This document shows positions 22,826 to 64,000 of a stretch of DNA of 64,000 nt, in pieces. Position 1 is the stretch's first letter, and each line of letters opens with the position of its first letter. Under the pieces are notes generated by a model. It was not told the DNA's origin and searched no databases. It saw only the letters and a program-made list of their open reading frames with translations. The stretch is from a virus: positions 16,086-80,085 of the IMG/VR virus record IMGVR_UViG_3300036045_000002; one strand, written 5' to 3'. Made by a program: the position numbers and the translations under genes.

Positions 22826-22866
22826 CTGGGCGCACGGCGCGCCCAGACAAGGGCGCGAGACGCGCC
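22826..22866 (+). promoter_or_regulatory. 5' leader hairpins with ACGGC loop
   Basis: CTGGGCGC-ACGGC-GCGCCCAG (22826-22846) is a perfect 8-bp stem, followed by GGCGCG-AGA-CGCGCC (22852-22866). The loop ACGGC recurs at 28118 and 35420. Confidence 0.75.
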
Positions 22867-23167: not shown

Positions 23168-23365
23168 ATGGAAGACTGCCAGCGATGCGAAGCCCTCAAG
23201 AGCGCAGGCAAGGTCCTGAGGTGCCGGAAGTGCCTGTTCGACCCGTTCTTCGAGGACGCGCCCCGAGCGCCCCGCGACGACATCGCAAACCCCGCGCCAG
23301 ATCGCGTAGCGTCGCGTCTGGCGCGTTTCCGCGACGCAGACGAGACGAGTCACACGTTCGCGTAG
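23168..23365 (+). CDS. Small zinc-finger protein
   Basis: This 65-residue protein has CQRCEALKSAGKVLRCRKC (residues 4-22), two CxxC pairs likely to bind one zinc ion. GGAGAAGG precedes the ATG. The last 30 codons run over an inverted repeat (23293-23325) of the same kind as those in intergenic regions at 29391 and 47006, so the functional protein may have ended earlier in ancestors. Confidence 0.55.
   Translation: MEDCQRCEALKSAGKVLRCRKCLFDPFFEDAPRAPRDDIANPAPDRVASRLARFRDADETSHTFA
23293..23325 (+). promoter_or_regulatory. Inverted repeat CGCGCCAGA...TCTGGCGCG
   Basis: A perfect 9-bp stem upstream of the 29-bp element at 23365. The same GCGCCAGA arm recurs at 29391, 36555 and 47007, ahead of the same element. 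Confidence 0.55.
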
Positions 23366-23393
23366 GTCGTCGATTCTACGCGATTCTAGAGCG
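23365..23393 (+). promoter_or_regulatory. 29-bp conserved upstream element, copy 1
   Basis: A 29-bp sequence beginning GGTCGTCGATTCTACG and ending CGATTCTAGAGCG. Copies of the same length lie at 29462-29490 and 36607-36635, and the last 16 bases recur at 47014-47029. It may be a promoter for a phage or host sigma factor, or an operator. Confidence 0.55.
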
Positions 23394-23460
23394 TTCAGGA
23401 ATGAAACCGGTCGTCCTCTACTACCGTGGCCAGAAACTCACCATCAAAAGGAGTGACCTC

Positions 23461-24886: not shown

Positions 24887-24911
24887 CGTCAACGTCGGGC
24901 GCTGTGCGCCC
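24860..24911 (+). promoter_or_regulatory. Weak promoter and leader hairpin before 24940
   Basis: TTGGGA (24860) and TAGCGT (24884) are 18 bp apart and overlap the upstream gene end. GGGCGC-TGT-GCGCCC (24897-24911) follows at the expected +1. The layout matches the stronger units, the sequence match is weak. Confidence 0.4.
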
Positions 24912-24939: not shown

Positions 24940-25167
24940 ATGCCGAGAACGTCCGCCAGCCGCTACTGCCGCGTCTGCCGTAAGCCGATCCCCAAGGAGC
25001 GGATCGCGGCCCTCCCGCAAACCACGACGTGCGTGTTCTGCTCCGACGAGGAGCCGACGCAAGGGCTGATAGAGTTCGGCCACAAGACCGCGCCGAGCCT
25101 GGTGATCCTCCCGAACGACCCGGAACAGCGACGCCGCGCCCGGAGGAGTTTCCGGCGGGCCCGCTGA
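24940..25167 (+). CDS. DksA/TraR-type zinc finger protein
   Basis: This 75-residue protein carries C10 and C13 in YCRVCRKPIP, then KERIAALPQTTTCVFC with C31 and C34. The CxxC...IPxxRxxALPxTxxCxxC pattern is the hallmark of the DksA/TraR zinc finger, which docks at the secondary channel of RNA polymerase. The usual N-terminal coiled coil is missing; instead there is a C-terminal basic tail (EQRRRARRSFRRAR). It may bind RNA polymerase or nucleic acid. The leader GGAGTCCGTG before the ATG matches other genes of this block. Confidence 0.7.
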   Translation: MPRTSASRYCRVCRKPIPKERIAALPQTTTCVFCSDEEPTQGLIEFGHKTAPSLVILPNDPEQRRRARRSFRRAR

Positions 25168-28073: not shown

Positions 28074-28102
28074 TTGCTCAGGTCTAACTGCGTCTCTATA
28101 CT
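28074..28102 (+). promoter_or_regulatory. Sigma70-like promoter before the NusG-like gene
   Basis: TTGCTC, a 17-bp spacer and TATACT, followed at once by the leader hairpin at 28106. Confidence 0.7.
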
Positions 28103-28105
28103 GAC

Positions 28106-28134
28106 GTTGTGGGGCGCACGGCGCGCCCCACAAC
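28106..28134 (+). promoter_or_regulatory. 12-bp stem leader hairpin with ACGGC loop
   Basis: GTTGTGGGGCGC (28106-28117), loop ACGGC and the perfect complement (28123-28134). It starts near +1, so the RNA would begin inside or just at the stem. Same loop as at 22834 and 35420. Confidence 0.85.
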
Positions 28135-28160
28135 TCCGTCACCCGAACCGAGAGTCCGTC

Positions 28161-29357
28161 ATGCCCGCGACCGAGACGACCCCCGTCGAGCGCTGCGAGT
28201 CTTGCCTGCAGCCGAACGCGACCTACCTGATGAAGTCGTTCCTGTCCGAGCGCCTCTGCCCGTTCTGCTTCAACCGCAAGAAGAACGGCGGCCCGCAGCC
28301 GCAGGTCGTCTACGTCCCGAGCAGCGAGGCGAACAAGGCCAGGTGCGAGGGGTGCCTGCTCGTCAAGCTCGTCCAGAACATGACGCTAGTGGACGGCCAG
28401 CACGTCTGCGCCGGCTGCGCCAAGGGGCTGTCGAAGAAGTGGTTCGCGGTCGCCGTCTCCGGCAGCGACAACAAGGTCAAGGCGAACATCCGCAAGCGGT
28501 TCCAGGCCCCCCACCTGGTCGGCAAGCTCGGCCGGGTCGTCATCCCGAAGCACAAGCAGGCCCGGACGACGAAGGACAGGTGGGAGGTGTACGCGGACGA
28601 GAGGCTGCTCGGCGTCGTGTCCGCGGCCGACCACGACCAGGCGATGTACGAGGCCCGGCTGAAATTCGAGCGGCCGAGGAAGAAGTCCGTGTACAAGCCC
28701 GAGGACGCGCAGGCCGGGGCCATGAGCGAGGTCAGGAAGGAGAAGCACGGCCGGCGGGTGTACTACGCGGCCTACGACGCCGACGGCAAGATGCTCGGCC
28801 GCGTCACGGGCCACAAGAACCAGGAGGTCGCGACCGTCGCCCTCACCGCGATGTACGGGCCGAAGGAGAAGGTCAACAAGAACCCGCGGGAGTCCGTGAC
28901 CGAGTACCACGTCGTCACCGACGTGAAGCTGGCCGTACACGGGGGGAGGACCGTCGTCCAGAATCAGCGGGCCATGCCCGGGTACCTGCTGGTCGAGTGC
29001 GAGGCCGACGACTGCGTGTTCAAGGAGATCAAGGACGTGTCGGGCGTGTACTCGCTGCTCCCGTTCTGGGAGGACATGAAGTACGACGACCTGGAAGAAG
29101 GCGAAGTCGTCCAGGGGGCCACGTCCCTGTCGAAGGCCGAGGTGGACGGGTGGGTCAAGCGGCCGGAGGACAAGCCCGTGGCGCTGGCCTACGCCGTGGG
29201 CGACGAGGTCACGCTCGGGGACGGGCCGATGAAGGGGACGAAGGTCAAGGTCGTCGCGATCACCGGGCACGTCATGGCCCCCGAGGTCAAGGTCTCGGCC
29301 ACGATCCTGGGCCGGGAGGTCGAGATCAAGGTCAAGCACACCGAGGTCCGCAAGTGA
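28161..29357 (+). CDS. NusG-like transcription factor with zinc-finger N-terminus and large NGN insertion
   Basis: This 398-residue protein is a strong candidate for a phage NusG/RfaH/LoaP-type factor. Residues 12-86 contain four CxxC pairs. KKWFAVAVSGSDNKVKANIRKR (from 92) is the first strand and helix of an NGN domain, with GRVVIPK nearby. After an insertion of about 135 residues (131-265), NQRAMPGYLLVECEADDCVF (268-287) supplies the PGYLL strand, followed by SGVYSLL. A KOW-like end (345-398: AVGDEVTLGDGPMKGTKVKV, then ILGREVEIKV) completes the fold. Such proteins bind RNA polymerase across the clamp and can antiterminate. It lies under a promoter with a special leader hairpin. GAGTCCGTC precedes the ATG. 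Confidence 0.8.
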   Translation: MPATETTPVERCESCLQPNATYLMKSFLSERLCPFCFNRKKNGGPQPQVVYVPSSEANKARCEGCLLVKLVQNMTLVDGQHVCAGCAKGLSKKWFAVAVSGSDNKVKANIRKRFQAPHLVGKLGRVVIPKHKQARTTKDRWEVYADERLLGVVSAADHDQAMYEARLKFERPRKKSVYKPEDAQAGAMSEVRKEKHGRRVYYAAYDADGKMLGRVTGHKNQEVATVALTAMYGPKEKVNKNPRESVTEYHVVTDVKLAVHGGRTVVQNQRAMPGYLLVECEADDCVFKEIKDVSGVYSLLPFWEDMKYDDLEEGEVVQGATSLSKAEVDGWVKRPEDKPVALAYAVGDEVTLGDGPMKGTKVKVVAITGHVMAPEVKVSATILGREVEIKVKHTEVRK

Positions 29358-29390: not shown

Positions 29391-29421
29391 GCGCCAGATC
29401 GCACAGAATCGCGTCTGGCGC
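29391..29421 (+). promoter_or_regulatory. Inverted repeat GCGCCAGA...TCTGGCGC
   Basis: An 8-bp stem with 15-base loop in the gap after the NusG-like gene. A second stem (TCGAAAGTG...CACTTTCGA, about 29431-29458) follows before the 29-bp element. Either could act as a weak terminator or regulatory fold. Confidence 0.5.
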
Positions 29422-29461
29422 GAGGTCGTGTCGAAAGTGAAGTGCGTCACACTTTCGATAC

Positions 29462-29490
29462 GGTCGTTGAACTGACGCGACTCTAGAGCG
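29462..29490 (+). promoter_or_regulatory. 29-bp conserved upstream element, copy 2
   Basis: GGTCGTTGAACTGACGCG then ACTCTAGAGCG, the same length as copies at 23365 and 36607. It ends 12 bases before the GTG at 29503, in front of AAAGGG. Confidence 0.6.
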
Positions 29491-29502
29491 AAAGGGACTG
29501 CC

Positions 29503-30321: not shown

Positions 30322-30897
30322 GTGACCAGGCGACAGCACACCCCCGCCGACCAGACGTTCGAGGAGACGAGGAACTTCGTCCACAAACTCCTGAACTCGT
30401 TCGCCCGGGCGTACCCGTACCTCGACCGGGACGACCTCACGTCGGCCGCCTACTACGGGTGGACGCAGGCGTACCAGACCTTCCGGCACGAACTCGGGTA
30501 CGCCTTCCTGACGTGGGTCGGGGAGAAGGTGGACAAGAGGCTCAAGGACGTGCTCCGGCGGACCCTCCACGAGAGACGGAAGAACGCCCGGACCGTGAGG
30601 ATCGAGACCGGGGAGGACTGGACGGGCGGTCACGACGGGAACACGGTCAACGTACCTGACCGGGAGCCGACGCCGCAGTTCCCCCGGGTCGAGTGGTTCG
30701 ACTCCCTGTCCCCCGACGCCCAGGTCGTCGCGACACTGGCCCTGGACAGCCCGATCGACGTCCGGCTCATCCTGTCCCAGTTCGGGGTCGAGGACGGCGG
30801 GGCCTGGCGGCAGGCCATCCGGGAGCACCTGGGCGAGGCCGGGTGGGGTGCCCGCCGGCTGAAAAGAACGTTCCTGGAAATAAGAGGTGCGTTGTGA
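30322..30897 (+). CDS. Sigma-factor-like protein, region 2
   Basis: This 191-residue protein has the signature of sigma70 region 2 at about residues 15-78. FVHKLLNSFARAYPYLDRDDL followed by AAYYGWTQAYQTF and GYAFLTWVGEKVDKRLKDVLR corresponds to regions 2.1-2.4, where the DDLxxxxxxG and FLTW(V) pattern melts and reads the -10 element. The C-terminal half has a short helix-turn-helix-like stretch but no clear region 4. It could direct transcription from unusual phage promoters, or be an anti-sigma-like competitor. GTG start with CAGGAG upstream; the reading from 30274 is rejected. Confidence 0.7.
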   Translation: MTRRQHTPADQTFEETRNFVHKLLNSFARAYPYLDRDDLTSAAYYGWTQAYQTFRHELGYAFLTWVGEKVDKRLKDVLRRTLHERRKNARTVRIETGEDWTGGHDGNTVNVPDREPTPQFPRVEWFDSLSPDAQVVATLALDSPIDVRLILSQFGVEDGGAWRQAIREHLGEAGWGARRLKRTFLEIRGAL

Positions 30898-35377: not shown

Positions 35378-35403
35378 ACAGGACGACATCGCGCCTGTAT
35401 GCT
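35374..35403 (+). promoter_or_regulatory. Sigma70-like promoter
   Basis: TTGAAC, an 18-bp spacer and TATGCT. The sequence TTGAACAGGACG recurs at the promoter at 39522. The -35 overlaps the primase stop codon. Confidence 0.65.
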
Positions 35404-35412
35404 GACGCGATG

Positions 35413-35431
35413 TCGTCGCACGGCGCGACGA
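35413..35431 (+). promoter_or_regulatory. Leader hairpin with ACGGC loop
   Basis: TCGTCGC-ACGGC-GCGACGA, perfect 7-bp stem at +3 or so. It matches the leader hairpins at 22826 and 28106. Confidence 0.75.
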
Positions 35432-35455
35432 CGCACACACACGAGAGATCGCGAC

Positions 35456-36499: not shown

Positions 36500-36561
36500 C
36501 TCGCATTCGCGGCGCTCGACGCGCCCCACACCTGTCTTCCTTTCGCACAGAATTGCGCCAG

Positions 36562-36616
36562 ATCGACGACCGCCGTCAGAGACGAGACTTTTCTCAGACT
36601 GAGTACGGTCGTCGAT
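36562..36616 (+). promoter_or_regulatory. Inverted repeat ATCGACGACCG...CGGTCGTCGAT
   Basis: A perfect 11-bp stem whose right arm is the first part of the 29-bp element at 36607. The stem would hide that element in RNA. Confidence 0.6.
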
Positions 36617-36635
36617 TGTACGCGATTCTAGAGCG
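36607..36635 (+). promoter_or_regulatory. 29-bp conserved upstream element, copy 3
   Basis: GGTCGTCGATTGTACG then CGATTCTAGAGCG. It differs from copy 1 at one base. The next gene starts 164 bases on at 36799, and nothing else recognisable lies between except GAAACGGACC and the Arg/Cys-coding-like spacer. Confidence 0.6.
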
Positions 36636-36798
36636 AAACGGACCTGCGTCCGACAAAACTTCCGGCGATAATCACGTCCGGCGCGCGTGGGATAGGCGGG
36701 GGTCATGTCCCGCCGACAAGCGACTTTCACCAGGGTCGCTTCCCACGCACCTTTTTCCTTCCTGCCTCTGGTGACCACCGCGCCGGTGGAGTTTTACC

Positions 36799-39554: not shown

Positions 39555-39589
39555 GCTGCGATCTCTCGCACGTCGCGAGACGACGCAGC
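39555..39589 (+). promoter_or_regulatory. Two-tier leader hairpin
   Basis: GCTGCG...CGCAGC encloses TCTCGC-ACGTC-GCGAGA. It lies just after the promoter at 39522, like the ACGGC-loop leaders, with loop ACGTC. Confidence 0.65.
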
Positions 39590-43476: not shown

Positions 43477-44225
43477 GGCCGACAGTGAGTGACTCACCGA
43501 TTAAATCGAAACTGGTCGAGCCGGGCCGTCAGAACCTCCAGACGGTCGAGAAGCAAGACCTCGACCCGGGCCGCCCATACGAGGTCTTCAAAGTCTGGAA
43601 GACGATCCAGGGCGAAGGCCCGTTCGCCGGCCGGCCGGCCGTGTTCGTCAGGCTGGCCGGGTGTAACCTCCAGTGCCCGGCGTGTGACACGGACTACACG
43701 TCCCGCCGGGACTTGATGTCCACCCACACGCTGTTCGCGGAGGTCGTCAAACTGGCCACCCGCGGCCTGGTCGTCTTCACCGGGGGCGAGCCTTTCCGCC
43801 AGCGACTCGGGCCGATCGTCCGGGAGTTGATTCACACGGGGGACTACTCCGTGCAGATCGAGACCAACGGCACCCTGTGGGACGAGGACATGCCGTGGTT
43901 CGGCGACCTGACCGTCGTGTGCTCGCCGAAGACGCCGAAGATCCACCCGCTCACGGAGGAGCGGGTCAACTACTACAAGTACGTGGTCGAAGACGGTCAC
44001 ATCGACCCGGTGGACGGCCTGCCGACCCGCGTCCTGGGGGCCCCGTGCGCGGCCCACAAGCCGAGGCCGCACTTCCCCCGGCACAAGGTGTACATCCAGC
44101 CGATGGACAACGGGCCGTGGCTGGGAGGCATGACCGGGAACAACGTCCACGCCGCGGCCGAGGTGTGCATGCGGCACGGGTACACGCTGAGCCTCCAAAT
44201 CCACAAGATACTCGGACTCGAATAG
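43473..44225 (+). CDS. queE: QueE, 7-carboxy-7-deazaguanine synthase
   Basis: This 250-residue radical SAM enzyme rearranges carboxytetrahydropterin to 7-carboxy-7-deazaguanine (CDG). KTIQGEGPFAGRPAVFVRLA is the typical start, then GCNLQCPACDTDYT with the CxxxCxxC iron-sulphur site, VFTGGEPF for SAM contact, and IETNGT. GTG at 43473 overlaps the previous stop; GTG at 43485 is an alternative. Confidence 0.92.
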   Translation: MRPTVSDSPIKSKLVEPGRQNLQTVEKQDLDPGRPYEVFKVWKTIQGEGPFAGRPAVFVRLAGCNLQCPACDTDYTSRRDLMSTHTLFAEVVKLATRGLVVFTGGEPFRQRLGPIVRELIHTGDYSVQIETNGTLWDEDMPWFGDLTVVCSPKTPKIHPLTEERVNYYKYVVEDGHIDPVDGLPTRVLGAPCAAHKPRPHFPRHKVYIQPMDNGPWLGGMTGNNVHAAAEVCMRHGYTLSLQIHKILGLE

Positions 44226-44259
44226 CCTGCGCCCGCGACAGGCGAGACTGAAAACGCTG

Positions 44260-44300
44260 GCGACCCGGGCCTCCGGCGGTCGAGGCCCGGGTCGCTTTTT
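44260..44300 (+). terminator. Strong intrinsic terminator after queE
   Basis: A perfect 14-bp stem (44260-44273 with 44282-44295, GCGACCCGGGCCTC and its complement), 8-base loop and five Ts. Confidence 0.92.
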
Positions 44301-44328
44301 CCTAGACCGACAGCCGGAGTTTTCCGCC

Positions 44329-44907
44329 ATGCTGGTGACACGCCCGCCTCGACCGACCCACCACGAGGCCGTCCAGGCCGTCAAGACGCTCCTCCGGTAC
44401 GTCGGCGAGGACCCCGACCGGGAAGGACTGCTGGACACACCGGAGCGGGTGCTCCGGGCGTACTCCGAACTCCTGGCCGGGTACGACCGGCAGGCCGGGT
44501 TCCAACTCAAGACGTTCGCCGACGGCGTGTGCGACGAAATGGTCGTGGTCAAAGGGATCGAGTTCACCAGCTTCTGCGAACACCATTGGCTGCCGTTCTC
44601 CGGCGTCGCCCACGTCGGGTACCTGCCGGACACACGGATCGTGGGCCTGTCGAAGATCCCGCGACTCGTGGACGTGTTCGCCAAGCGGCTCCAGGTGCAG
44701 GAGAGGATGACCCAGCAGGTTGTGGACGCCTTGCAGGAGTACCTGGCCCCCAAGGGGTGCGGGTGCGTGGTCGTCGCGTCCCACTCGTGCATGTCGTGCC
44801 GGGGCGTCAGGAAGCAGAACGCCACCATGACCACGTCCGCCTTGCGGGGGGCGTTTAAAGCGGACGCTTCGACCCGGGCCGAATTCCTGTCCATCGTGAG
44901 AGGGTGA
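44329..44907 (+). CDS. folE: FolE, GTP cyclohydrolase I
   Basis: This 192-residue enzyme makes dihydroneopterin triphosphate from GTP, the entry step for the que pathway. Family marks are DTPERVLRAYSELLAGY, EFTSFCEHHWLPFSGVAHVG (zinc Cys and His pair), LVDVFAKRLQVQERM and SCMSCRGVRKQNATMTT (second zinc Cys). It stands behind a terminator, so it may start a new unit, although no clear promoter is seen. The ATG at 44329 has CGGAG about nine bases upstream. Confidence 0.95.
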   Translation: MLVTRPPRPTHHEAVQAVKTLLRYVGEDPDREGLLDTPERVLRAYSELLAGYDRQAGFQLKTFADGVCDEMVVVKGIEFTSFCEHHWLPFSGVAHVGYLPDTRIVGLSKIPRLVDVFAKRLQVQERMTQQVVDALQEYLAPKGCGCVVVASHSCMSCRGVRKQNATMTTSALRGAFKADASTRAEFLSIVRG

Positions 44908-44910
44908 GTC

Positions 44911-45252
44911 GTGCCTAACCGAAAGGCCGTCAAGAACCGGTACGCCGGAAGAAAATCAACGGCCGGCCCGACCAGGCCGAACACCTGGAGGTACGGTCGG
45001 GTGGAGCCTACGGCCAAGGCCGGCCTGTACCTGCTGAAACTCCGGAGCAGGGTAGACGTTTGCCAGGTCGTCTACCTGCCTCGGGAGGACAACCCGGACG
45101 CGACGTACCTGGCCGTGGTCTGCCGGGGCCTGACGCGGGAGTTCAAACACTGGTCGGACCTGCACGACCTGGTGCGGGACGAGGTCGTGATGTACTACGG
45201 CCCCGTCCAACCGTACAACGACAACACCAACCCGAACCTCCCAGGAGGGTGA
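44911..45252 (+). CDS. Hypothetical protein in deazaguanine cluster
   Basis: This 113-residue protein starts at GTG 44911, three bases after folE. It is basic at the N-terminus (RKAVKNRYAGRKS) and has strand-rich sequence (AGLYLLKLRSRVDVCQVVYL). It ends one base before the next gene. No family is recognised. Confidence 0.55.
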   Translation: MPNRKAVKNRYAGRKSTAGPTRPNTWRYGRVEPTAKAGLYLLKLRSRVDVCQVVYLPREDNPDATYLAVVCRGLTREFKHWSDLHDLVRDEVVMYYGPVQPYNDNTNPNLPGG

Positions 45253-45253
45253 C

Positions 45254-45643
45254 GTGCTCAGCTTCAACACCGCGGTGTGGGTCAAGGCGCGGTTCACCGC
45301 GTTGCACCGGTGGAAGGACGCCCCCGACGAGGCCGCCTTCCTGCGGGACTACCACCGGCACGAGTTCCACGTGGAACTCGGCGTCAAAGTCAACCACGAC
45401 GACCGGGACGTGGAATTCTTGAAACTCAAGAACGACCTGCAGTGCCTGCTCCTGGCCGTCTACCACAACGAGACCTTCGACCACTCCTGCGAGCAGGTCG
45501 CCTCGCAGATCCTGACCAGGTACCACGACGCCGGGTGGGACGTGGCCTACTGCAAGGTGAGCGAGGACGGCGAGAACGGGGCGACCGTCTACGCCGTCAA
45601 GCCCCTCCAAGTCGTCGTCCCCTTCCGGCCGGAGGAGAACTGA
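45254..45643 (+). CDS. T-fold protein, divergent QueD/PTPS relative
   Basis: This 129-residue protein has FTALHRWKDAPDE, then YHRHEFHVELGVKVN, EFLKLKNDL and SCEQVASQIL, the order of QueD/pterin synthase motifs (AxHR, HRHEF in place of HGHNY, DF/EF helix, xxENxA). The catalytic Cys before the HxH motif is missing. It may bind a pterin or deazaguanine, or serve as a structural subunit. GTG start with GGAGGGTGAC; its stop overlaps the glycosyltransferase start (TGATG). Confidence 0.55.
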   Translation: MLSFNTAVWVKARFTALHRWKDAPDEAAFLRDYHRHEFHVELGVKVNHDDRDVEFLKLKNDLQCLLLAVYHNETFDHSCEQVASQILTRYHDAGWDVAYCKVSEDGENGATVYAVKPLQVVVPFRPEEN

Positions 45644-46911
45644 TGCTCTACTACCTGCCACTCGAACCGTACAAGGAACGGTACACGATGCAACTCTCGG
45701 CGGCCGAGACCGGCTGGTTCGAGAGGAACTGGTTGGCGGCCAACGTCAACTACAAACGGATCCAGCCTCCGTTCTCGACGCCTACGACCCCGCCAAGGTC
45801 GATCAAGACCGGGCGGGTGCTGGACGCGGTGGGGAGGTCGCGGTGGGCGATGGGGCAGATCGACCAACTCCTGTCGCTGGCCGACCGGGACTACATCTCC
45901 AGCACCGACGTGATCTACCTGGACGACTTCTGGCACCCCGGCGTCCAGGCCCTCCCGTACCTGTTCCAGCAGAAGGGCATCAAGCCCCGGATGTACGCCT
46001 TCTGCTGGGCGCAGTCCGTTGACCAGTACGACTTCACCTACGCGATGCGGGACTGGATTCGGCACTTCGAGCGCGGCACGGCCGCGCTCCTGGACGGGGT
46101 GTTCGTCGCGTCCACGGAACTCAAGACCCTGCTCGCCCGGGAGTGGGTTGCGCACGAAGGCAAGGTCGAGGTCGTCGGCCTGCCGTTCGACTCGGGTGAG
46201 GTCAAATCGAGAATGCCTGAGGACTACCAGGTGTACACGGACCGGGACCGGCTGTCCAAGCTGATCGACGTGTCCGGTTACCCGACCGAAATGCCCCGAA
46301 AGAACCAGGTCGTGTTCTCGTCCAGGTGGGACCGGGAGAAGGACCCGCAGTTCTTCTGCCGGGTGGCGGAAATCGTCCTCCGGGAGACCCAGGACGTCAA
46401 GTTCGTCGTCTGCTCCTCGGCCGACGTGATCCGGTCTAACTACCCCGGCCTGGTGAACAGCCTGGACGACATGGCGATCCGGCACCCGCACAACTTCCAG
46501 GTCGCGACCGGGCTGACGAAGGAGGCCTACTACCGGATTCTGACCGAGTCCAAGGTCCAGTTCAACTGCGCCGACCAGGACTGGGTGTCGTTCACCCTCC
46601 TGGAGGCCGTCACGGCCGGCTGCTACCCGCTGTACCCGTACTTCCGGAGTTTTCCCGAGACGTTCGACCGGGACATGCGGTTCATGTACCCGAAGGACAA
46701 CGAGCAGGAGGCCGCGAAGAAGCTCCTGGCCGTCCTCCGGACGCCGGACGACCTCTGGGCCGCCGACCAGATCGCCGAAAGGCAGCAGATCGTCCGGCGG
46801 CACGACATGACCTGGATGCGAATTCTTGACAGGATGCAAGTCCACTTCGACTGTGACCCGGAGACCCGCAAGAAGGTGCGAAAGGAAGCGTACGCGCCGG
46901 GCGCTGTCTAG
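45643..46911 (+). CDS. Glycosyltransferase, GT-B type (GT4-like)
   Basis: This 422-residue protein reads as a GT-B glycosyltransferase. The N-terminal half has STDVIYLDDFWHPGVQALPY and later VFVASTELKTLL and VEVVGLPFDSG, typical of the donor-domain entry. Residues about 225-310 (NQVVFSSRWDREKDPQFFCR) and VSFTLLEAVTAGCYPLYPYF (the E-x7-E-like GT4 motif with Glu and Gly) complete the fold. In this cluster it may add sugar to a modified base, but capsid or host targets are also possible. It starts one base into the previous stop. Confidence 0.7.
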   Translation: MLYYLPLEPYKERYTMQLSAAETGWFERNWLAANVNYKRIQPPFSTPTTPPRSIKTGRVLDAVGRSRWAMGQIDQLLSLADRDYISSTDVIYLDDFWHPGVQALPYLFQQKGIKPRMYAFCWAQSVDQYDFTYAMRDWIRHFERGTAALLDGVFVASTELKTLLAREWVAHEGKVEVVGLPFDSGEVKSRMPEDYQVYTDRDRLSKLIDVSGYPTEMPRKNQVVFSSRWDREKDPQFFCRVAEIVLRETQDVKFVVCSSADVIRSNYPGLVNSLDDMAIRHPHNFQVATGLTKEAYYRILTESKVQFNCADQDWVSFTLLEAVTAGCYPLYPYFRSFPETFDRDMRFMYPKDNEQEAAKKLLAVLRTPDDLWAADQIAERQQIVRRHDMTWMRILDRMQVHFDCDPETRKKVRKEAYAPGAV

Positions 46912-46937
46912 CGAAAACTCGCAGACCCCGCGCCATT

Positions 46938-47029
46938 CGCTCTAGAATCGCGTCTGGCGCGTTTTCAACTCGAAAGTGACTCTCTTCTCAGTTTCGTCGG
47001 GACCTCGCGCCAGACGCGATTCTAGAGCG
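46938..47029. repeat. 24-bp perfect inverted repeat around the TCTAGAGCG element
   Basis: The left arm 46938-46961 is the exact complement of 47006-47029, with a 44-base spacer that contains CTCGAAAGTGACTC. The right arm ends in the same 16-base core (ACGCGATTCTAGAGCG, 47014-47029) that closes the 29-bp element elsewhere. It precedes AAAGGGACTGCC and the GTG at 47042. Confidence 0.8.
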
Positions 47030-47041
47030 AAAGGGACTGCC

Positions 47042-47779
47042 GTGACCGACAAGTACGACAACCGCAACCACCCTTTGTTTGAAGGACAGAACAACCAGAA
47101 CTCGCTCAACCTGGGACTCACGACGTTCTGCACCATGCGGTGCCCGAACTGCTCCATTTCCGTCCCGAAGCACAAGGCCGAGAAGACGGCTAAGGACGCG
47201 AGCGTGTCGGACATCATCCGGGACTCCCGCTGGATGCGGGGCCTGCGTCGCGTCCATCTGACCGGAGGAGAGCCTCTTCTCCACCCCGACTTCAGGTACG
47301 TCGCCGAGCACGCCCGCGACTGGTTCCACTGCTCTTACCTGACCGTCGAGACGAACGGCCACCTGTACCACAAGTACAAGGACGTGTTCCGGACGTTTGA
47401 CCTGGTGTTCGTGACCCATTACGAACAAGACACGATCTACCCGGGCAACCCGGGCAACGGTCACATCGTGGACCTAGTCCAACAAGACCTAGGAGACCGG
47501 ATGATCCGGGAGCCTCCGGTCAGGCACGAACACGGCCACGGAATCCGGGAACAACTCGTCCAGCTGAACGCGTCCAAAGGACAACTCCCGGAGGACGTGG
47601 CCTGCTCCAAGTACCGGAACCCGGGCCTCCCGGCCGGCTGGTACGACGGCAAGGTCTACGCCTGCTGCGTGTCGTTCGGCATCAGCTCGGAGCTGGGAAT
47701 TCCGGTGACCGAGGACTGGCGACAGCGAATTCAGAATCTGGCGAAAGGCTGCATCAAGTGCTGCTACCACGGGACGTGA
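47042..47779 (+). CDS. Radical SAM protein in modification cluster
   Basis: This 245-residue protein has CTMRCPNCS, the CxxxCxxC site for a 4Fe-4S cluster, VHLTGGEPLLHPDF (GGE SAM motif), and a Cys-rich end (CCVSF, later CIKCC) that may hold an auxiliary cluster, as in SPASM or twitch proteins. It differs from QueE. Lying directly before the DpdA-like gene with a 1-base gap, it may act on the deazaguanine base or nucleotide. GTG start after AAAGGGACTGCC. Confidence 0.75.
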   Translation: MTDKYDNRNHPLFEGQNNQNSLNLGLTTFCTMRCPNCSISVPKHKAEKTAKDASVSDIIRDSRWMRGLRRVHLTGGEPLLHPDFRYVAEHARDWFHCSYLTVETNGHLYHKYKDVFRTFDLVFVTHYEQDTIYPGNPGNGHIVDLVQQDLGDRMIREPPVRHEHGHGIREQLVQLNASKGQLPEDVACSKYRNPGLPAGWYDGKVYACCVSFGISSELGIPVTEDWRQRIQNLAKGCIKCCYHGT

Positions 47780-47780
47780 C

Positions 47781-48845
47781 ATGGGTACCTCTGGACAAGG
47801 GCTGAAACGGCTGAAGCGGAACAAGTCGGTCGTGTCCCTCCAAGGCATGGACAGGCAGTGCCGGAGCCTCTGGCTGGACTCCGGAGCCCACAGCCTCTAT
47901 CACCAACACTGCTTCAAAACCGCTACCGTACCAATCAAGAGAAAGGTGGTCGTAGACGGAAAGGAAAAGATTGTCTCGTTCTTCCGGCGGGTCCCGATCA
48001 AGGGTCAGAAAAGGTTCGACTGGTTCGGTAAACCTGACAACCTGTCCAAGGCCTTTATCGCCTACCTGAAGGCCTACGCCGACTTCGTCCGGAAAAACGA
48101 GTCCGGTATCGACTACTACGCAAACGTGGACGTAATTTACAGCCCGGCCTTGTCCTGGGCCGCTCTCAAACACCTGGAGAAGGATGAGGGACTGCGCCCC
48201 GTTCCGATCATTCACCACGGCACCGACTTGGACTGGGTCGAACGCCATCTGAACGCCGGCTACAAATACATCGGGCTAGGTGGCCTGGGCCAGGAATCGA
48301 ACGTCGAGACTTACCACAGAGACACGGACAAGGTCTACAACCTTCTGTGCGATAACAAGGACCGGTTACCGTGTGTGAGGACACACGGGTTTGCGATGAC
48401 CAGCTACAAACTGCTGATCCGGTACCCGTGGTGGTCGGTCGATTCGACCAGCGCCTACCGGGTCGCCGGATTCGGCAGTATATTCCTCCCACACCGCCGG
48501 GCCGGGAAGTGGGACTTCTCTATCGCCCCGTACATCGTCGCCTTCAGCAGCCGGAGTTCGGCCAAAAAAGGGAAAAGGAAGCACATCGCCTACTTTCAGA
48601 ACTCCGACATGAAACTGCACCGGCAGATATTACTAGACTGGCTCGCCGAGATCGACATGCCGCTAGGCGAGATGGGCGAAGATGACGAGGTAATTACCTA
48701 CGGCGTCGCGTCCGAATACAACGCCCGTGCCGTCGCCAACCTGAAGTTCTTCCAGAAACTGTGTGACTGGCTGCCGAAATGGCCGTGGCCGTTCAAGATC
48801 GACACGGACGTGGGCAAGTTCGTTCCGGACCGGAGACTGAAGTGA
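47781..48845 (+). CDS. DpdA/TGT-like deazaguanine transglycosylase
   Basis: This 354-residue protein resembles the TIM barrel of tRNA-guanine transglycosylase and phage DpdA. LWLDSGAHSLY (about residues 30-40) is the strand with catalytic-type Asp. YYANVDVIYSP follows. VPIIHHGTDLDWVERHLNAG and YIGLGGLGQ match the QGG and GGL segments. THGFAMTSYKLLIRYPWWSV then DSTSAYRVAG resembles the strand with the second Asp (DMFDCV-like). The enzyme would swap guanine in DNA for a 7-deazaguanine. The first strand and helix of the barrel are absent from the N-terminus. It is coupled to the next gene, which seems to encode them. Confidence 0.65.
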   Translation: MGTSGQGLKRLKRNKSVVSLQGMDRQCRSLWLDSGAHSLYHQHCFKTATVPIKRKVVVDGKEKIVSFFRRVPIKGQKRFDWFGKPDNLSKAFIAYLKAYADFVRKNESGIDYYANVDVIYSPALSWAALKHLEKDEGLRPVPIIHHGTDLDWVERHLNAGYKYIGLGGLGQESNVETYHRDTDKVYNLLCDNKDRLPCVRTHGFAMTSYKLLIRYPWWSVDSTSAYRVAGFGSIFLPHRRAGKWDFSIAPYIVAFSSRSSAKKGKRKHIAYFQNSDMKLHRQILLDWLAEIDMPLGEMGEDDEVITYGVASEYNARAVANLKFFQKLCDWLPKWPWPFKIDTDVGKFVPDRRLK

Positions 48846-50106: not shown

Positions 50107-50352
50107 ATGAAATGGACTGTTATATTCAGTCACGACCGGGACGACTACGGGTTTGAGACCTTCGACGACGAAGCCGAGGCCTGGAAGTTTTACCTGGAGG
50201 CGATGCGGAGGTACAAAGGCAGTCCTAACGCCCCGCAGTTCGGCAGCTACGTCGTGGTAATCAAAGGCGAAGTGGTGGTCGAACACGATGGACACATTCT
50301 TCCCGACGGGCACGGTCAGGCAAGTCCGAAAACCCCTCCCGCTTCTCCCTAA
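50107..50352 (+). CDS. Small hypothetical protein
   Basis: This 81-residue protein (WTVIFSHDRDDYGFETFDDE, then AWKFYLEAMRRYKGS) starts just after the clamp stop and overlaps the UDG fusion gene by 65 bases. The overlapped end is Pro/Ala/Ser-rich and probably shaped by the other gene. No family is recognised. Confidence 0.5.
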   Translation: MKWTVIFSHDRDDYGFETFDDEAEAWKFYLEAMRRYKGSPNAPQFGSYVVVIKGEVVVEHDGHILPDGHGQASPKTPPASP

Positions 50353-51490
50353 GTGCGGGGCCTGCGGGCTCGACAAGTCCGGGTGCCTGAACCCGAAGAT
50401 GCCGGTCGCCGGGAAAGGCCGCCGCAAGATCCTGGTCGTCGGCGAGGCCCCGGGCGAGACGGAGGACCGGACGAACCGGCCGTTCGTCGGCAAGGCCGGC
50501 AGGTACCTGCGGAGGGCGCTGGACCAGGTCGGCGTTGACCTGGACGAGGACTGCTGGACGACTAACGCACTGATCTGTAGGCCGCCGGACAACAAGATCA
50601 AGGACGAGAACGCCGTCGAATACTGCCGGCCCAACCTGCTCCGGGAGATCGACAGGTTGAAGCCACAAACGGTCGTCCTACTCGGGGCGACTCCTGTCAA
50701 GAGTCTGATCGGGTTCCTGTGGAAGGAGTCCGTCGGCACGATCTCCAGGTGGGTGGGTTGGAACGTGCCGTGCCAAAGGTTCAACTGCTGGGTGTGCCCG
50801 GCCAACCATCCGTCGTACCTGATCCGGCTGGACAACCCGCTCGCCGACAGGCTGTTCCTCGGCACCCTCAGGAAGGCGTTCGCGCACGACAGGCGGCCGT
50901 GGGACACGGTCCCGGACTACCGGGACAAGGTCGAGGTCGAGTTCGACACGGACAAGGCCGCCGGGGCCGTGCTAGGCATGGTCGGGAAGCGTCCGGTGGC
51001 GTTCGATTTCGAGACCAACATGCTCAAGCCGGACTCGGACGCGGCCCGGATCGTGTGCTGCTCGGTCAGCGACGGCAGGAGGACGGTCGCGTACCCCTGG
51101 TACGGGGCCGCCGTGCGGGCCACGAAGGCCCTGGTCGAATCCGGTACGCCGCTGATCGCGTCGAACATGAAGTTCGAGGACCGGTGGACGCGAAAGGTGC
51201 TAAAGGCGAAGGTCAGGAACTGGAACTGGGATACGATGCTCGCCGCCCACGTCATCGACAACCGGCCCGACATCACCAGCATCAAATTCCAGGCGTTCGC
51301 GCTACTCGGCCAGGAGAGCTACGACGACCACGTGAAGCCGTACCTGGAGTCCAGGCAGCCTGGGGGGTACTCCAAGAACCGGGTCACCCAGGTGGACATG
51401 AGGGACCTCATGCTCTACTGCGGCCTGGACTCTCTCCTGGAATGGAAGGTCGCCCACATCCAGAAACGGAGGCTGGGGTTCGATGCCTGA
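50288..51490 (+). CDS. Uracil-DNA glycosylase (family 4/5) fused to a 3'-5' exonuclease domain
   Basis: This 400-residue protein joins two enzymes. Residues about 15-200 are an iron-sulphur UDG: cysteines in KCGACGLDKSGC, then VVGEAPGETEDRTNRPFVGK (water-activating and uracil pocket motif), ALICRPPDN, and CPANHPSYLIR (HPS motif 3). Residues about 220-400 are a DnaQ/PolA-type exonuclease: PVAFDFETNMLKP (ExoI DxE), ASNMKFEDRW and NWDTMLAAHVID (ExoII), and MLYCGLDSLLEWKV (ExoIII). The UDG may remove dU arising from the phage's own deaminase, coupled to proofreading for the separate polymerase. The polymerase part is missing. Confidence 0.85.
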   Translation: MDTFFPTGTVRQVRKPLPLLPKCGACGLDKSGCLNPKMPVAGKGRRKILVVGEAPGETEDRTNRPFVGKAGRYLRRALDQVGVDLDEDCWTTNALICRPPDNKIKDENAVEYCRPNLLREIDRLKPQTVVLLGATPVKSLIGFLWKESVGTISRWVGWNVPCQRFNCWVCPANHPSYLIRLDNPLADRLFLGTLRKAFAHDRRPWDTVPDYRDKVEVEFDTDKAAGAVLGMVGKRPVAFDFETNMLKPDSDAARIVCCSVSDGRRTVAYPWYGAAVRATKALVESGTPLIASNMKFEDRWTRKVLKAKVRNWNWDTMLAAHVIDNRPDITSIKFQAFALLGQESYDDHVKPYLESRQPGGYSKNRVTQVDMRDLMLYCGLDSLLEWKVAHIQKRRLGFDA

Positions 51491-55236: not shown

Positions 55237-55467
55237 ATGCTCCTGGAAGTGGTCAACGCGATGACGAAACGGATGGCGCAGGTCACGGACTTCCTGGAGG
55301 GCCTGCCTAACTCCGACCTGGTGAACTTCCGGGCCCTCCACGAGATGATGCCTCTCCGGAAGCTCCAGCTGATGCGGGCCGGCCAGCGAGGCAAGCCGGA
55401 CACCTTGAAGTTCATGAACCACGTCGTCGTCATGAAGTCCTTGTTCGTCCTGTCCGGGAAGGTGTGA
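55237..55467 (+). CDS. Small helical hypothetical protein
   Basis: This 76-residue protein (VVNAMTKRMAQVTDFLEGLP, then HEMMPLRKLQLMRAGQ) is helical and basic. It lies directly between thyX and the polymerase and overlaps the polymerase start by one base. No family is recognised; it may be a polymerase accessory, by position only. Confidence 0.55.
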   Translation: MLLEVVNAMTKRMAQVTDFLEGLPNSDLVNFRALHEMMPLRKLQLMRAGQRGKPDTLKFMNHVVVMKSLFVLSGKV

Positions 55468-56942
55468 TGCGCCCAACGACCAGGCAAGCCTACAAGTTCT
55501 TCCACGAAGGCACGAAAGTCCTGTCCAGGATCGAAGGCAACGGCGTCCAGATCGACGTTGGCTACCTGGACAGGACGATCAAGCGGGTCTCGGACGAGAT
55601 CGACCGGAAGACCGAGGCCCTCCGGGAGTCGAAGGTCTACGCCAAGTGGAAGAAGCGGTTCGGCCGGAAGGCCAACCTGGACAGCACCCCGCAACTCGCG
55701 GACGTCCTGTTCAAGGACATGGGGTTCGAGCCGACCGAGTTCACCGAGAAGACGAAGGACCTGGACGAGCACCAGCGCCGGCACAAGACCGACGAATACT
55801 CCCTCCGGAACATCGACCATCCCTTCATCAAGGACTTCTTCTCCGTCCGGAAGCTCAAGAAGGTCCTCGGCACCTACCTCAAAGGCGTCCGCCGGGAGGT
55901 CACGCCGACAGGCCTCCTGCACCCGTCGTACAACCTGGCCGGCGGCCAGACCGACGACCAGAAAGGCGGGGCCGCGTCCTACCGGGGGAGTTCGTCCAAC
56001 CCTAACTTCCAGAACATCCCCATCCGCAACAAGGTCATGGGCGGGCTCATCCGGCCGTGCTTCGTCGCCAGGAAAGGCCGGAGACTGGTCGAGCGGGACT
56101 TCTCCGGCATCGAGGTCCGGGTCAGCGCCTGCTACAACAAGGACCCGAACCTCATCCGGTACATCAACGACAAGTCCACGGACATGCACCGGGACGAGGC
56201 GTGCGAACTGTTCATCCTCAAGCCGGACCAAGTGGTCAAGGGGACGACGCGGGACGCCTCTAAGAACATGTGGGTCTTCCCACAATTCTACGGCAGCGTC
56301 TGGTTCCAGTGCGCCCCGCCGATCTGGGAGGCGATGGACCGGCGGGACTTCCGGGTCGGCGAGTCCGGGATCACGATCCGGGAGCACCTCAGGAGGCACG
56401 GCATTACCGAACTCGGGGAGTGCGACCCGGAGAAGGGCGAGCCGGGAAAGGGGACGTTCGCCCGCCACCTGATGCAGGCCGAGAAGAAGCTCTGGAACGA
56501 CCGGTTCCCGGTCTACACGAAGTGGAAGAAGGACTTCTACAACCGGTACCTGGAGCGCGGGTACTTCGACCTGTACACCGGGTTCAGGTGCGCCGGCCTG
56601 TTCCGCCGCAACCAGGTCATCAACTTCCCGGTCCAGGGGGCCGCGTTCCACTGCCTGCTCTGGACGCTCATCGAGATCCAGAAGGAGATCGACCGACGCC
56701 GGATGCGGACTCTCCTGGTCGGCGAAATCCACGACTCGTTCTTCGGCGACTGCCCGGAGGACGAGGTCCAGGAGTACCTGGACCTGACGGGCGAGATCGC
56801 GGAGGAGAGGCTGCCCAAGGCGTGGGACTGGATCAACGTGCCGATCGAGACCGAGGTGGACGTCGTCCCGGCCGGGAAGTCGTGGTACGACAAGGAGCAG
56901 TGGGTCAGGAACGCCAAGGGCGTGTGGGAGGCCAAGGCGTGA
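55467..56942 (+). CDS. Family A DNA polymerase, polymerase domain only
   Basis: This 491-residue protein holds the Pol I palm, fingers and thumb without exonuclease domains. SSNPNFQNIPIRN is the usual pre-motif A sequence; motif A is ERDFSGIEVRV; motif B is RDASKNMWVFPQFYGSVW (Lys and YG); motif C is GEIHDSFFGD, with Ser where most have Glu. An insertion of about 80 residues lies between motif B and C. Proofreading seems to come from the UDG-exonuclease protein, and 5' nuclease from the gene at 63149. ATG 55467 overlaps the previous stop. Confidence 0.92.
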   Translation: MRPTTRQAYKFFHEGTKVLSRIEGNGVQIDVGYLDRTIKRVSDEIDRKTEALRESKVYAKWKKRFGRKANLDSTPQLADVLFKDMGFEPTEFTEKTKDLDEHQRRHKTDEYSLRNIDHPFIKDFFSVRKLKKVLGTYLKGVRREVTPTGLLHPSYNLAGGQTDDQKGGAASYRGSSSNPNFQNIPIRNKVMGGLIRPCFVARKGRRLVERDFSGIEVRVSACYNKDPNLIRYINDKSTDMHRDEACELFILKPDQVVKGTTRDASKNMWVFPQFYGSVWFQCAPPIWEAMDRRDFRVGESGITIREHLRRHGITELGECDPEKGEPGKGTFARHLMQAEKKLWNDRFPVYTKWKKDFYNRYLERGYFDLYTGFRCAGLFRRNQVINFPVQGAAFHCLLWTLIEIQKEIDRRRMRTLLVGEIHDSFFGDCPEDEVQEYLDLTGEIAEERLPKAWDWINVPIETEVDVVPAGKSWYDKEQWVRNAKGVWEAKA

Positions 56943-63148: not shown

Positions 63149-64000
63149 ATGAGCAGGACCTGGCTGGCGCTGGACGTGAACTACCTGACCTGGCGGGCCT
63201 TCCACGTCTTCGGGGGCCTGTCCCACGGCGGGGTCGGCACAGGCGTCGTCTACGGCGTACTCAAGGACGTCGTGTCCCTGTGCGACACCCACGCCTCCAC
63301 CAACCTGGTGTTCTGCTTCGACCACGGCCGCGAACTGAAGCGGAAGGAGGTCTTCCCGGGGTACAAGGCCCGCCGGCACGGCAAGGTCATGACGGAGGAC
63401 GAGAAGCAGGTTTACCAGGACGTGCAACGGCAGATCAACCTGATGAAGACGGAGTACCTGCCGTACCTCGGGTTCGAGAACGTGTTCTACCAGGACGGGT
63501 ACGAGGCGGACGACATCATCGCGTCGGTGTGCGACAACACCCCGGCGAAGGACGAGGTGGTCGTCGTCTCGGGGGACAAGGATCTGCTCCAACTGCTGTC
63601 GGCCCGGGTGTTCGTCTGGCAGCCTACCCACCGGCAAGTGACGACCGTGAAGACGTTCCAGGACAAGTATTACGGCCTTCACCCGCAGCACTGGGCGCGG
63701 GTCAAGGCCATCGCCGGGTGTTCGACGGATGACGTTCCAGGCGTCAAGGGCGTCGGTGACGCGACGGCCGCCAAGTTCCTCATGGGCCTCAAGACCAACA
63801 AGGCGGACGAGATCGAGGCGTGGCTGGTGAGCAACCAGTATCGCAAAAACCTCGACCTCGTCCGACTCCCGTACACCGGAACGCCTGACTACCCGCCTGT
63901 CCAGGACATGGTGGACACCAAGTGCTGGCGGAAGCTGACCACCAGGCTCGGGATGAAGTCGCTGGCCGACCTGGCCCCGCGGCCGGTCGAAGGGTTCGGC
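63149..64000 (+). CDS. 5'-3' exonuclease (FEN/PolI N-terminal domain type), partial
   Basis: This gene is cut at the right edge after 284 codons. It begins MSRTWLALDVNYLTWRAFHV and has VFCFDHGRELKRKEVFPGYK and YQDGYEADDIIASVCDN, then VVVSGDKDLLQLLS and the helix-hairpin-helix VKAIAGCSTDDVPGVKGVGD, all standard for the Pol I 5' nuclease. It would remove primers. CGGAGGGG lies six bases before the ATG. As a free-standing enzyme it is the third separate piece of a Pol I activity set. Confidence 0.93.
   Translation, partial: MSRTWLALDVNYLTWRAFHVFGGLSHGGVGTGVVYGVLKDVVSLCDTHASTNLVFCFDHGRELKRKEVFPGYKARRHGKVMTEDEKQVYQDVQRQINLMKTEYLPYLGFENVFYQDGYEADDIIASVCDNTPAKDEVVVVSGDKDLLQLLSARVFVWQPTHRQVTTVKTFQDKYYGLHPQHWARVKAIAGCSTDDVPGVKGVGDATAAKFLMGLKTNKADEIEAWLVSNQYRKNLDLVRLPYTGTPDYPPVQDMVDTKCWRKLTTRLGMKSLADLAPRPVEGFG

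What the first reader, a model, noticed from the sequence alone, without database searches (positions are those of the whole stretch)
28106..29357. Phage NusG-like factor paired with repeated promoter-start hairpins
The 28161 protein has NGN halves and a KOW-like end but with a zinc-finger N-terminus and a 135-residue insertion. At least four plus-strand promoters (22789, 28074, 35374, 39522) are followed within about 3-9 bases by a GC hairpin with loop ACGGC (three cases) or ACGTC. One of them sits on this gene itself. NusG paralogues such as RfaH and LoaP act through cis sites (ops or a hairpin) in the leader. This could be a phage-specific processive antitermination or pausing system. The structure of the protein and hairpins is seen; the link is inference.
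Basis: partly seen in the sequence, partly recalled or inferred. Interest (0 to 1): 0.85.

Follow-up and report, generated by a model that had tools for sequence, protein, structure and literature searches.

The report
Phage NusG factor plus promoter-start hairpins
An uncultured phage carries its own altered copy of the universal transcription-elongation protein NusG, and four of its promoters start their RNA with the same small hairpin (varying stem, constant loop), which makes a phage-made, hairpin-addressed read-through system plausible and easy to test, although nothing yet shows that the protein and the hairpins work together.

Summary
The 28161-29357 protein is a divergent NusG-family factor: both NGN halves and the KOW are matched by HMM, by PDB sequence and by fold. 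It has two N-terminal CxxC zinc-ribbon-like units. A ~120-residue insertion, two beta-beta-alpha-type units, sits at the point where Thermotoga/Aquifex NusG carry domain DII. Exactly four 6-12 bp hairpins with loop ACGNC exist in the 80-kb genome (0.33 expected). All lie on the + strand, directly after sigma70-like promoters and 22-41 nt before a start codon. Outer stem pairs covary while loop and inner CGC/GCG are constant, so they are RNA elements. They are absent from ~130 related loci. Only one other phage of this family (G022) has a NusG: syntenic, with one zinc finger, no insertion and no ACGNC hairpin. A strong intrinsic terminator (44259-44296) sits 31 nt before a gene, with no promoter behind it for 18 kb, so readthrough seems needed. 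Best reading: a phage NusG paralogue recruited at 5'-terminal hairpins for processive transcription (about 0.4). Rivals: 5' mRNA-stabilising hairpins, put-like RNA, or another binder. The protein-hairpin link stays inference. It is a new variant of a known kind, not a member of LoaP, RfaH or housekeeping NusG.

The parts
28161..29357 (+). Phage NusG-family protein, 398 aa: two zinc-ribbon-like units (aa 12-36, 63-86), NGN first half (aa ~91-133), insertion (aa ~134-252), NGN second half (aa ~255-302), KOW (aa ~343-398)
   Evidence: HMM, PDB sequence, alignment, AlphaFold and Foldseek
28560..28916 (+). Insertion in the NGN domain: two beta-beta(-beta)-alpha units, at the same point as domain DII of Thermotoga/Aquifex NusG; no detectable relative
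   Evidence: (secondary structure E140-145 E148-154 H155-169; E190-196 E199-205 E211-216 H221-232)
28106..28134 (+). Site 2: 12-bp hairpin GTTGTGGGGCGC[ACGGC]GCGCCCCACAAC at the transcript start of the NusG gene itself; promoter TTGCTC-17-TATACT at 28074
22826..22846 (+). Site 1: CTGGGCGC[ACGGC]GCGCCCAG after promoter 22789 (TTGTAG-17-TATGCT); first + strand operon, start codon GTG 22888; a second hairpin GGCGCG[AGA]CGCGCC follows
35412..35432 (+). Site 3: GTCGTCGC[ACGGC]GCGACGAC after promoter 35374 (TTGAAC-18-TATGCT); start codon 35456
39556..39588 (+). Site 4: CTGCG-TCTCGC[ACGTC]GCGAGA-CGCAG after promoter 39522 (TTGAAC-18-TAGTCT); start codon 39611
44259..44296 (+). Strong intrinsic-terminator-like hairpin (15 pairs, TTTTT) inside the + strand gene series, 31 nt before GTP cyclohydrolase I (44329); no promoter-like site behind it until 62777
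30322..30897 (+). Phage sigma70 region-2 protein, two genes downstream of nusG
24940..25167 (+). DksA/TraR-type zinc-finger protein; a weaker promoter + hairpin (GGGCGC[TGT]GCGCCC, 24897-24911) precedes it

Best explanation
The gene encodes a phage-specific NusG paralogue that binds the host RNA polymerase through its NGN domain. It is directed to the phage's own transcripts by a short RNA hairpin (CGC-[ACGNC]-GCG core, variable outer stem) made at the very 5' end of four + strand transcription units, its own included. Loaded soon after promoter escape, it would keep polymerase processive through pauses and at least one intrinsic terminator. Shown here: NusG homology and domain order; hairpins real, covarying, and tied to promoters; a terminator that seems to need readthrough. 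Inferred: that the protein binds the hairpin (perhaps by its KOW, zinc ribbons or insertion), and that the result is antitermination rather than pausing or translation coupling.
For: Protein is NusG by HMM, PDB sequence and fold. Exactly four ACGNC hairpins, all at + strand promoters, far above chance; the covariance model separates them cleanly (24.5-27.6 bits; next best 15.8). In the outer three pairs both sides change while the loop and inner CGC/GCG stay fixed, which points to a recognised RNA loop rather than a DNA operator. One site is on the nusG gene itself. They are absent from NusG-less relatives. Terminator 44259-44296 lies 31 nt before gene 44329, and no sigma70-like + promoter follows until 62777, so the DNA polymerase, clamp and clamp-loader genes need readthrough or another promoter type. 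LoaP, a NusG paralogue, is known to need a leader RNA hairpin for antitermination (PMC12691694).
Against: No second genome with both parts: G022's NusG comes without ACGNC hairpins. The leaders lack the terminator that LoaP's dfn leader has. A hairpin with a pyrimidine tail also sits before the UvsX gene in G022 and in NusG-less G027, so mid-operon terminator-like hairpins do not by themselves demand NusG. Phage sigma promoters unlike sigma70 could lie beyond 44297. A 5' hairpin with a 22-41 nt leader also suits mRNA stabilisation.
Confidence: 0.4

Rival explanations
1. The hairpins are 5'-terminal mRNA-protecting stem-loops (blocking 5'-end-dependent decay) and the NusG paralogue acts on phage transcription without them.
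For: The hairpins begin 3-12 nt after the -10, at or near +1, followed by a short leader of 22-41 nt to the start codon in all four cases. 5'-terminal stem-loops stabilise bacterial mRNA (established: Emory, Bouvet and Belasco 1992, cited in PMC3997798).
Against: A pure stabiliser needs no constant loop, yet ACGNC and the inner CGC/GCG pairs are constant while the outer stem varies. Few such hairpins at promoters in relatives and none on the - strand of this genome.
Confidence: 0.25
2. The hairpins are put-like RNAs that act on polymerase directly, without the NusG-like protein.
For: HK022 putL lies just downstream of PL, folds from nucleotide 3 on, and suppresses termination with no phage protein (PMC9378689). 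Site 1 has two tandem hairpins.
Against: put is ~70 nt with two stem-loops; sites 2-4 show one conserved hairpin of 17-33 nt. No Rfam match.
Confidence: 0.1
3. The hairpins are sites for a different phage regulator (an RNA-binding repressor or activator, or part of promoters used with the phage sigma factor or the DksA/TraR-like protein).
For: The genome encodes a sigma70 region-2 protein and a DksA/TraR zinc-finger protein nearby. The promoters share sequence beyond the -10 (TATGCTGACG; TTGAACAGGACG in sites 3 and 4), and site 3 has a 12-bp inverted repeat around the -10.
Against: Sigma does not need a downstream covarying hairpin. Relatives with orthologues of the sigma gene (G027, G022) lack these hairpins.
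Confidence: 0.17
4. Chance or paralogy: sites 3 and 4 (and 1 and 2) are duplicated promoter cassettes and the hairpins have no function.
For: Sites 3 and 4 share upstream sequence (TTGAACAGGACG), so they probably descend from one cassette.
Against: Diverged copies have kept full pairing through changes on both sides, and the hairpin count is far above simulation.
Confidence: 0.08

Closest known systems
LoaP (specialised NusG paralogue with the dfn UNCG leader hairpin)
   Same: NusG-family protein; small GC-rich RNA hairpin in the leader of the controlled units; long operons with terminators (PMC12691694)
   Different: HMM score 35 bits against a cut-off of 125; loop ACGNC, not UNCG; hairpin at the transcript start, no leader terminator after it; zinc ribbons and insertion; phage-borne
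Domain DII-bearing NusG of Thermotoga / Aquifex
   Same: Insertion at the same point of NGN; best fold and sequence matches
   Different: The insertion has no detectable sequence relationship (two beta-beta-alpha-type units); N-terminal zinc ribbons; not the housekeeping gene
RfaH / ops
   Same: Specialised NusG paralogue addressed by a cis element near the start of transcription (PMC5995543)
   Different: No RfaH HMM match; no ops sequence in excess; the KOW is modelled as a beta barrel, not a helical hairpin
Lambda N/nut (boxB pentaloop hairpin) and HK022 put
   Same: Short hairpin near the 5' end of early phage transcripts linked to processive readthrough; boxB is also a small stem with a 5-nt loop (own knowledge)
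   Different: N is a small disordered protein, not NusG; no boxA-like string in the four leaders; put needs no protein
Other phage-encoded NusG homologues (e.g. A0A6J5PZH6; IMG/VR contigs in L213-L222)
   Same: NGN + KOW protein carried by a phage
   Different: None of those read has the zinc ribbons or the insertion; different phage lineages

Membership tests
NusG/Spt5 superfamily | NGN domain | tested here: met
   PF02357 29.7 bits over cut-off 22.2; both halves in order in the PDB match; model pLDDT ~80-87, Foldseek NusG top hits
NusG/Spt5 superfamily | C-terminal KOW domain | tested here: met
   aa ~343-398, pLDDT ~90; M. tuberculosis NusG CTD TM 0.75
NusG/Spt5 superfamily | binds the polymerase clamp during elongation | not testable with these tools
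   needs biochemistry
Housekeeping NusG (TIGR00922 equivalog) | curated score cut-off 135.7 bits | tested here: not met
   57.6 bits; only 22-30% identity to bacterial NusG over the shared core
LoaP | NF033641 cut-off 125 bits | tested here: not met
   35 bits
LoaP | UNCG-type leader hairpin followed by a leader terminator | tested here: not met
   loop is ACGNC; no terminator in the leaders
RfaH | ops element in the leader | tested here: not met
   2 one-mismatch matches against 4.25 expected, none in a leader
RfaH | helical, autoinhibitory C-terminal domain | tested here: inconclusive
   KOW modelled as beta barrel; fold switching cannot be tested this way
HK022 put | ~70-nt RNA with two stem-loops, protein-independent | tested here: not met
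   only site 1 has two hairpins; protein independence not testable
Lambda nut | boxA next to a boxB pentaloop hairpin | tested here: not met
   no CTCTT-type string in the four leaders; the host's boxA is unknown

The most novel reading that the evidence does not exclude
A phage has turned NusG itself into an N/Q-like antiterminator: zinc ribbons and a DII-site insertion read a CGC-[ACGNC]-GCG RNA hairpin at the first nucleotides of each target transcript, so the factor is loaded at promoter escape and stays on polymerase through terminators. This would be a new class of hairpin-addressed NusG, with positive autoregulation.
Probability: 0.3. Interest if true: 0.8.

Novelty: new variant of a known kind. 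Interest (0 to 1): 0.6.

Why it matters
Classical phage antitermination uses small dedicated proteins (N, Q) or RNA (put), while NusG paralogues with cis RNA hairpins are known from cellular operons such as those of LoaP. A phage NusG with its own hairpin code would join the two. It would show that the DII insertion point is a general docking place for recruitment domains, and give a compact four-site system in which NusG-RNA recognition can be tested.

Tried and rejected
Close relatives of the protein: none in IMG/VR by single protein or two-sequence profiles (only G022 again), in phage isolates, or in 85,000 bacterial species (only housekeeping NusG at 22-30%; the short stretches of 33-44% are the NGN N-terminus only). 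Matches of G022's NusG in 'phage' records look like bacterial contigs (Listeria, Salmonella etc.). Promoter+hairpin DNA patterns in IMG/VR gave 3 and 2 hits, about the number I would expect by chance; the first three have no ACGNC hairpin and the last two are not followed by such a hairpin. Rfam: no match. A DNA operator reading was rejected because the palindrome arms differ between sites while staying complementary. A general inverted repeat flanking every -10 was considered; only site 3 is significant (site 4 marginal). Single-sequence AlphaFold was useless outside the insertion. The insertion has no PDB sequence relative and no copy elsewhere in the phage family.

Full report
What the window is. 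The window is bases 16086-80085 of an 80,085-base IMG/VR record. The two contig ends overlap by 523 bp at 96% identity, so the genome is probably circular or circularly permuted and nearly complete. By synteny it belongs to an uncultured phage lineage with the records called here G022 (IMGVR_UViG_3300049847_000321), G027 and G014, which share terminase, SNF2 helicase, primase, DnaB and many other genes at roughly 30-53% identity; no isolate phage in the collection has the primase. Structural genes run on the - strand; early and replication genes run on the + strand from about 22.8 kb to the end of the window and on into the start of the contig.

The protein. The ORF 28161-29357 passes Pfam's NusG threshold, matches PHROG 'transcription antiterminator' and the NusG and LoaP models below their curated cut-offs. 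The PDB sequence match is collinear: aa 90-133 to the NGN start and aa 267-398 to the NGN end and KOW of T. maritima NusG. Alignment with bacterial NusG places a ~120-residue insertion after the 'GRVVIP' strand, where Thermosipho carries its own insertion; T. maritima DII helps recruit NusG to the elongation complex (PMC7819879). A model from that alignment has confident NGN segments and KOW, and two beta-beta-alpha-type units in the insertion; Foldseek returns NusG structures only at the top, DII-bearing ones first. Two CxxC-x~17-CxxC units precede the NGN. In G022 a syntenic NusG has one such zinc unit, no insertion, and 26-29% identity in the NGN/KOW part. Of 78 further records of the family or of pattern hits searched (many of them fragments), none has a NusG. 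Unrelated phages do carry plain NusG homologues, so phage NusG as such is not new.

The hairpins. A scan of the whole genome for loop ACGNC with at least 6 perfect pairs gives exactly four, all on +; simulation gives 0.33 on average, never above 2. Each starts 3-12 nt after the -10 of a promoter-like pair with 17-18 nt spacing and ends 22-41 nt before a start codon. On the + strand 7 of 15 promoter-like pairs are followed by a hairpin, on the - strand 0 of 8; in G022, G027 and G014 it is about 0-6%. The three distinct 17-mers are fully paired (shuffles 76%), three outer pairs change on both sides, and the inner three pairs and the loop (bar one base) are constant. A covariance model gives the four 24.5-27.6 bits; the next best in the window has 15.8, and 645 kb of relatives plus the rest of this contig give nothing above 16.8. 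The model was built from these four, so the clean gap, not the score, is the evidence. They are therefore RNA hairpins with a constant loop and a free outer stem, which argues for recognition of the loop.

What might need them. The + strand has one strong intrinsic terminator, 44259-44296, 31 nt before GTP cyclohydrolase I; no sigma70-like + promoter follows until 62777. The ribonucleotide reductase, DNA polymerase, clamp, clamp loader and other genes beyond it therefore rely on readthrough or on promoters of another type; the phage has a sigma70 region-2 gene, so the second cannot be excluded. The nearest upstream promoter is the hairpin-bearing site 4. G022 has no terminator at this place, so the terminator and the ACGNC hairpins occur together in this genome.

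Mechanism and rivals. I commit to a phage NusG paralogue recruited to polymerase by the 5' hairpin and acting as a processivity factor, with site 2 giving positive feedback (0.4). The steps shown are the NusG homology, the hairpins and the terminator; binding and effect are inferred. Against it stand the lack of a second genome with both parts, and the fact that 5'-terminal hairpins can simply protect mRNA. The constant loop is the main reason to rank the stabiliser lower.

Known families. It is a member of the NusG/Spt5 superfamily, but fails the tests for housekeeping NusG (score), LoaP (score, UNCG loop, leader terminator) and RfaH (ops). It works like LoaP/dfn or N/boxB if the model is right; it is not filed as either.

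Noticed in passing
window 29395-29492, 36540-36637, 46930-47031; also 23300-23395: A second class of repeated leader element: long hairpins (up to about 26 pairs at 46930-47026) whose 3' arm ends in CGCGATTCTAGAGCGAA; the 29.4 and 47.0 kb copies end directly before a start codon (GGGACTGCCGTG). Middle parts vary; no Rfam match, not found in relatives.
   Followed up: partly
L039 (G027:C1) at about 2474, 2930, 3507, 4746, 5453, 5858, 8477: NusG-less relative G027 has about seven copies of its own intergenic RNA element: CCCATTACC-[variable, covarying stem-loop]-GGACCTGGTGACCGTT, each shortly before AAAGGAGCT and a start codon. No Rfam family.
   Followed up: partly
window 35382-35417: A 12-bp inverted repeat (GACGACATCGCG...CGCGATGTCGTC) flanks the -10 of site 3; its right arm overlaps the hairpin's 5' arm, so read-through RNA and promoter-started RNA would fold differently.
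   Followed up: partly
window 50288-51490 and 55467-56942: The DNA polymerase appears split in two genes (PHROG 17 positions 476-827 and 834-1236) with ribonucleotide reductase and thymidylate synthase genes between them; the two are adjacent ORFs in G022.
   Followed up: no
window 43485-48845: Radical SAM protein, GTP cyclohydrolase I and a queuine tRNA-ribosyltransferase-like protein: probable 7-deazaguanine DNA modification set.
   Followed up: no
contig ends: L002:1-523 and window 63478-64000: The contig ends overlap over 523 bp at 96% identity although the record is classed as linear: probably a near-complete circular or permuted genome with strain variation at the joint.
   Followed up: yes
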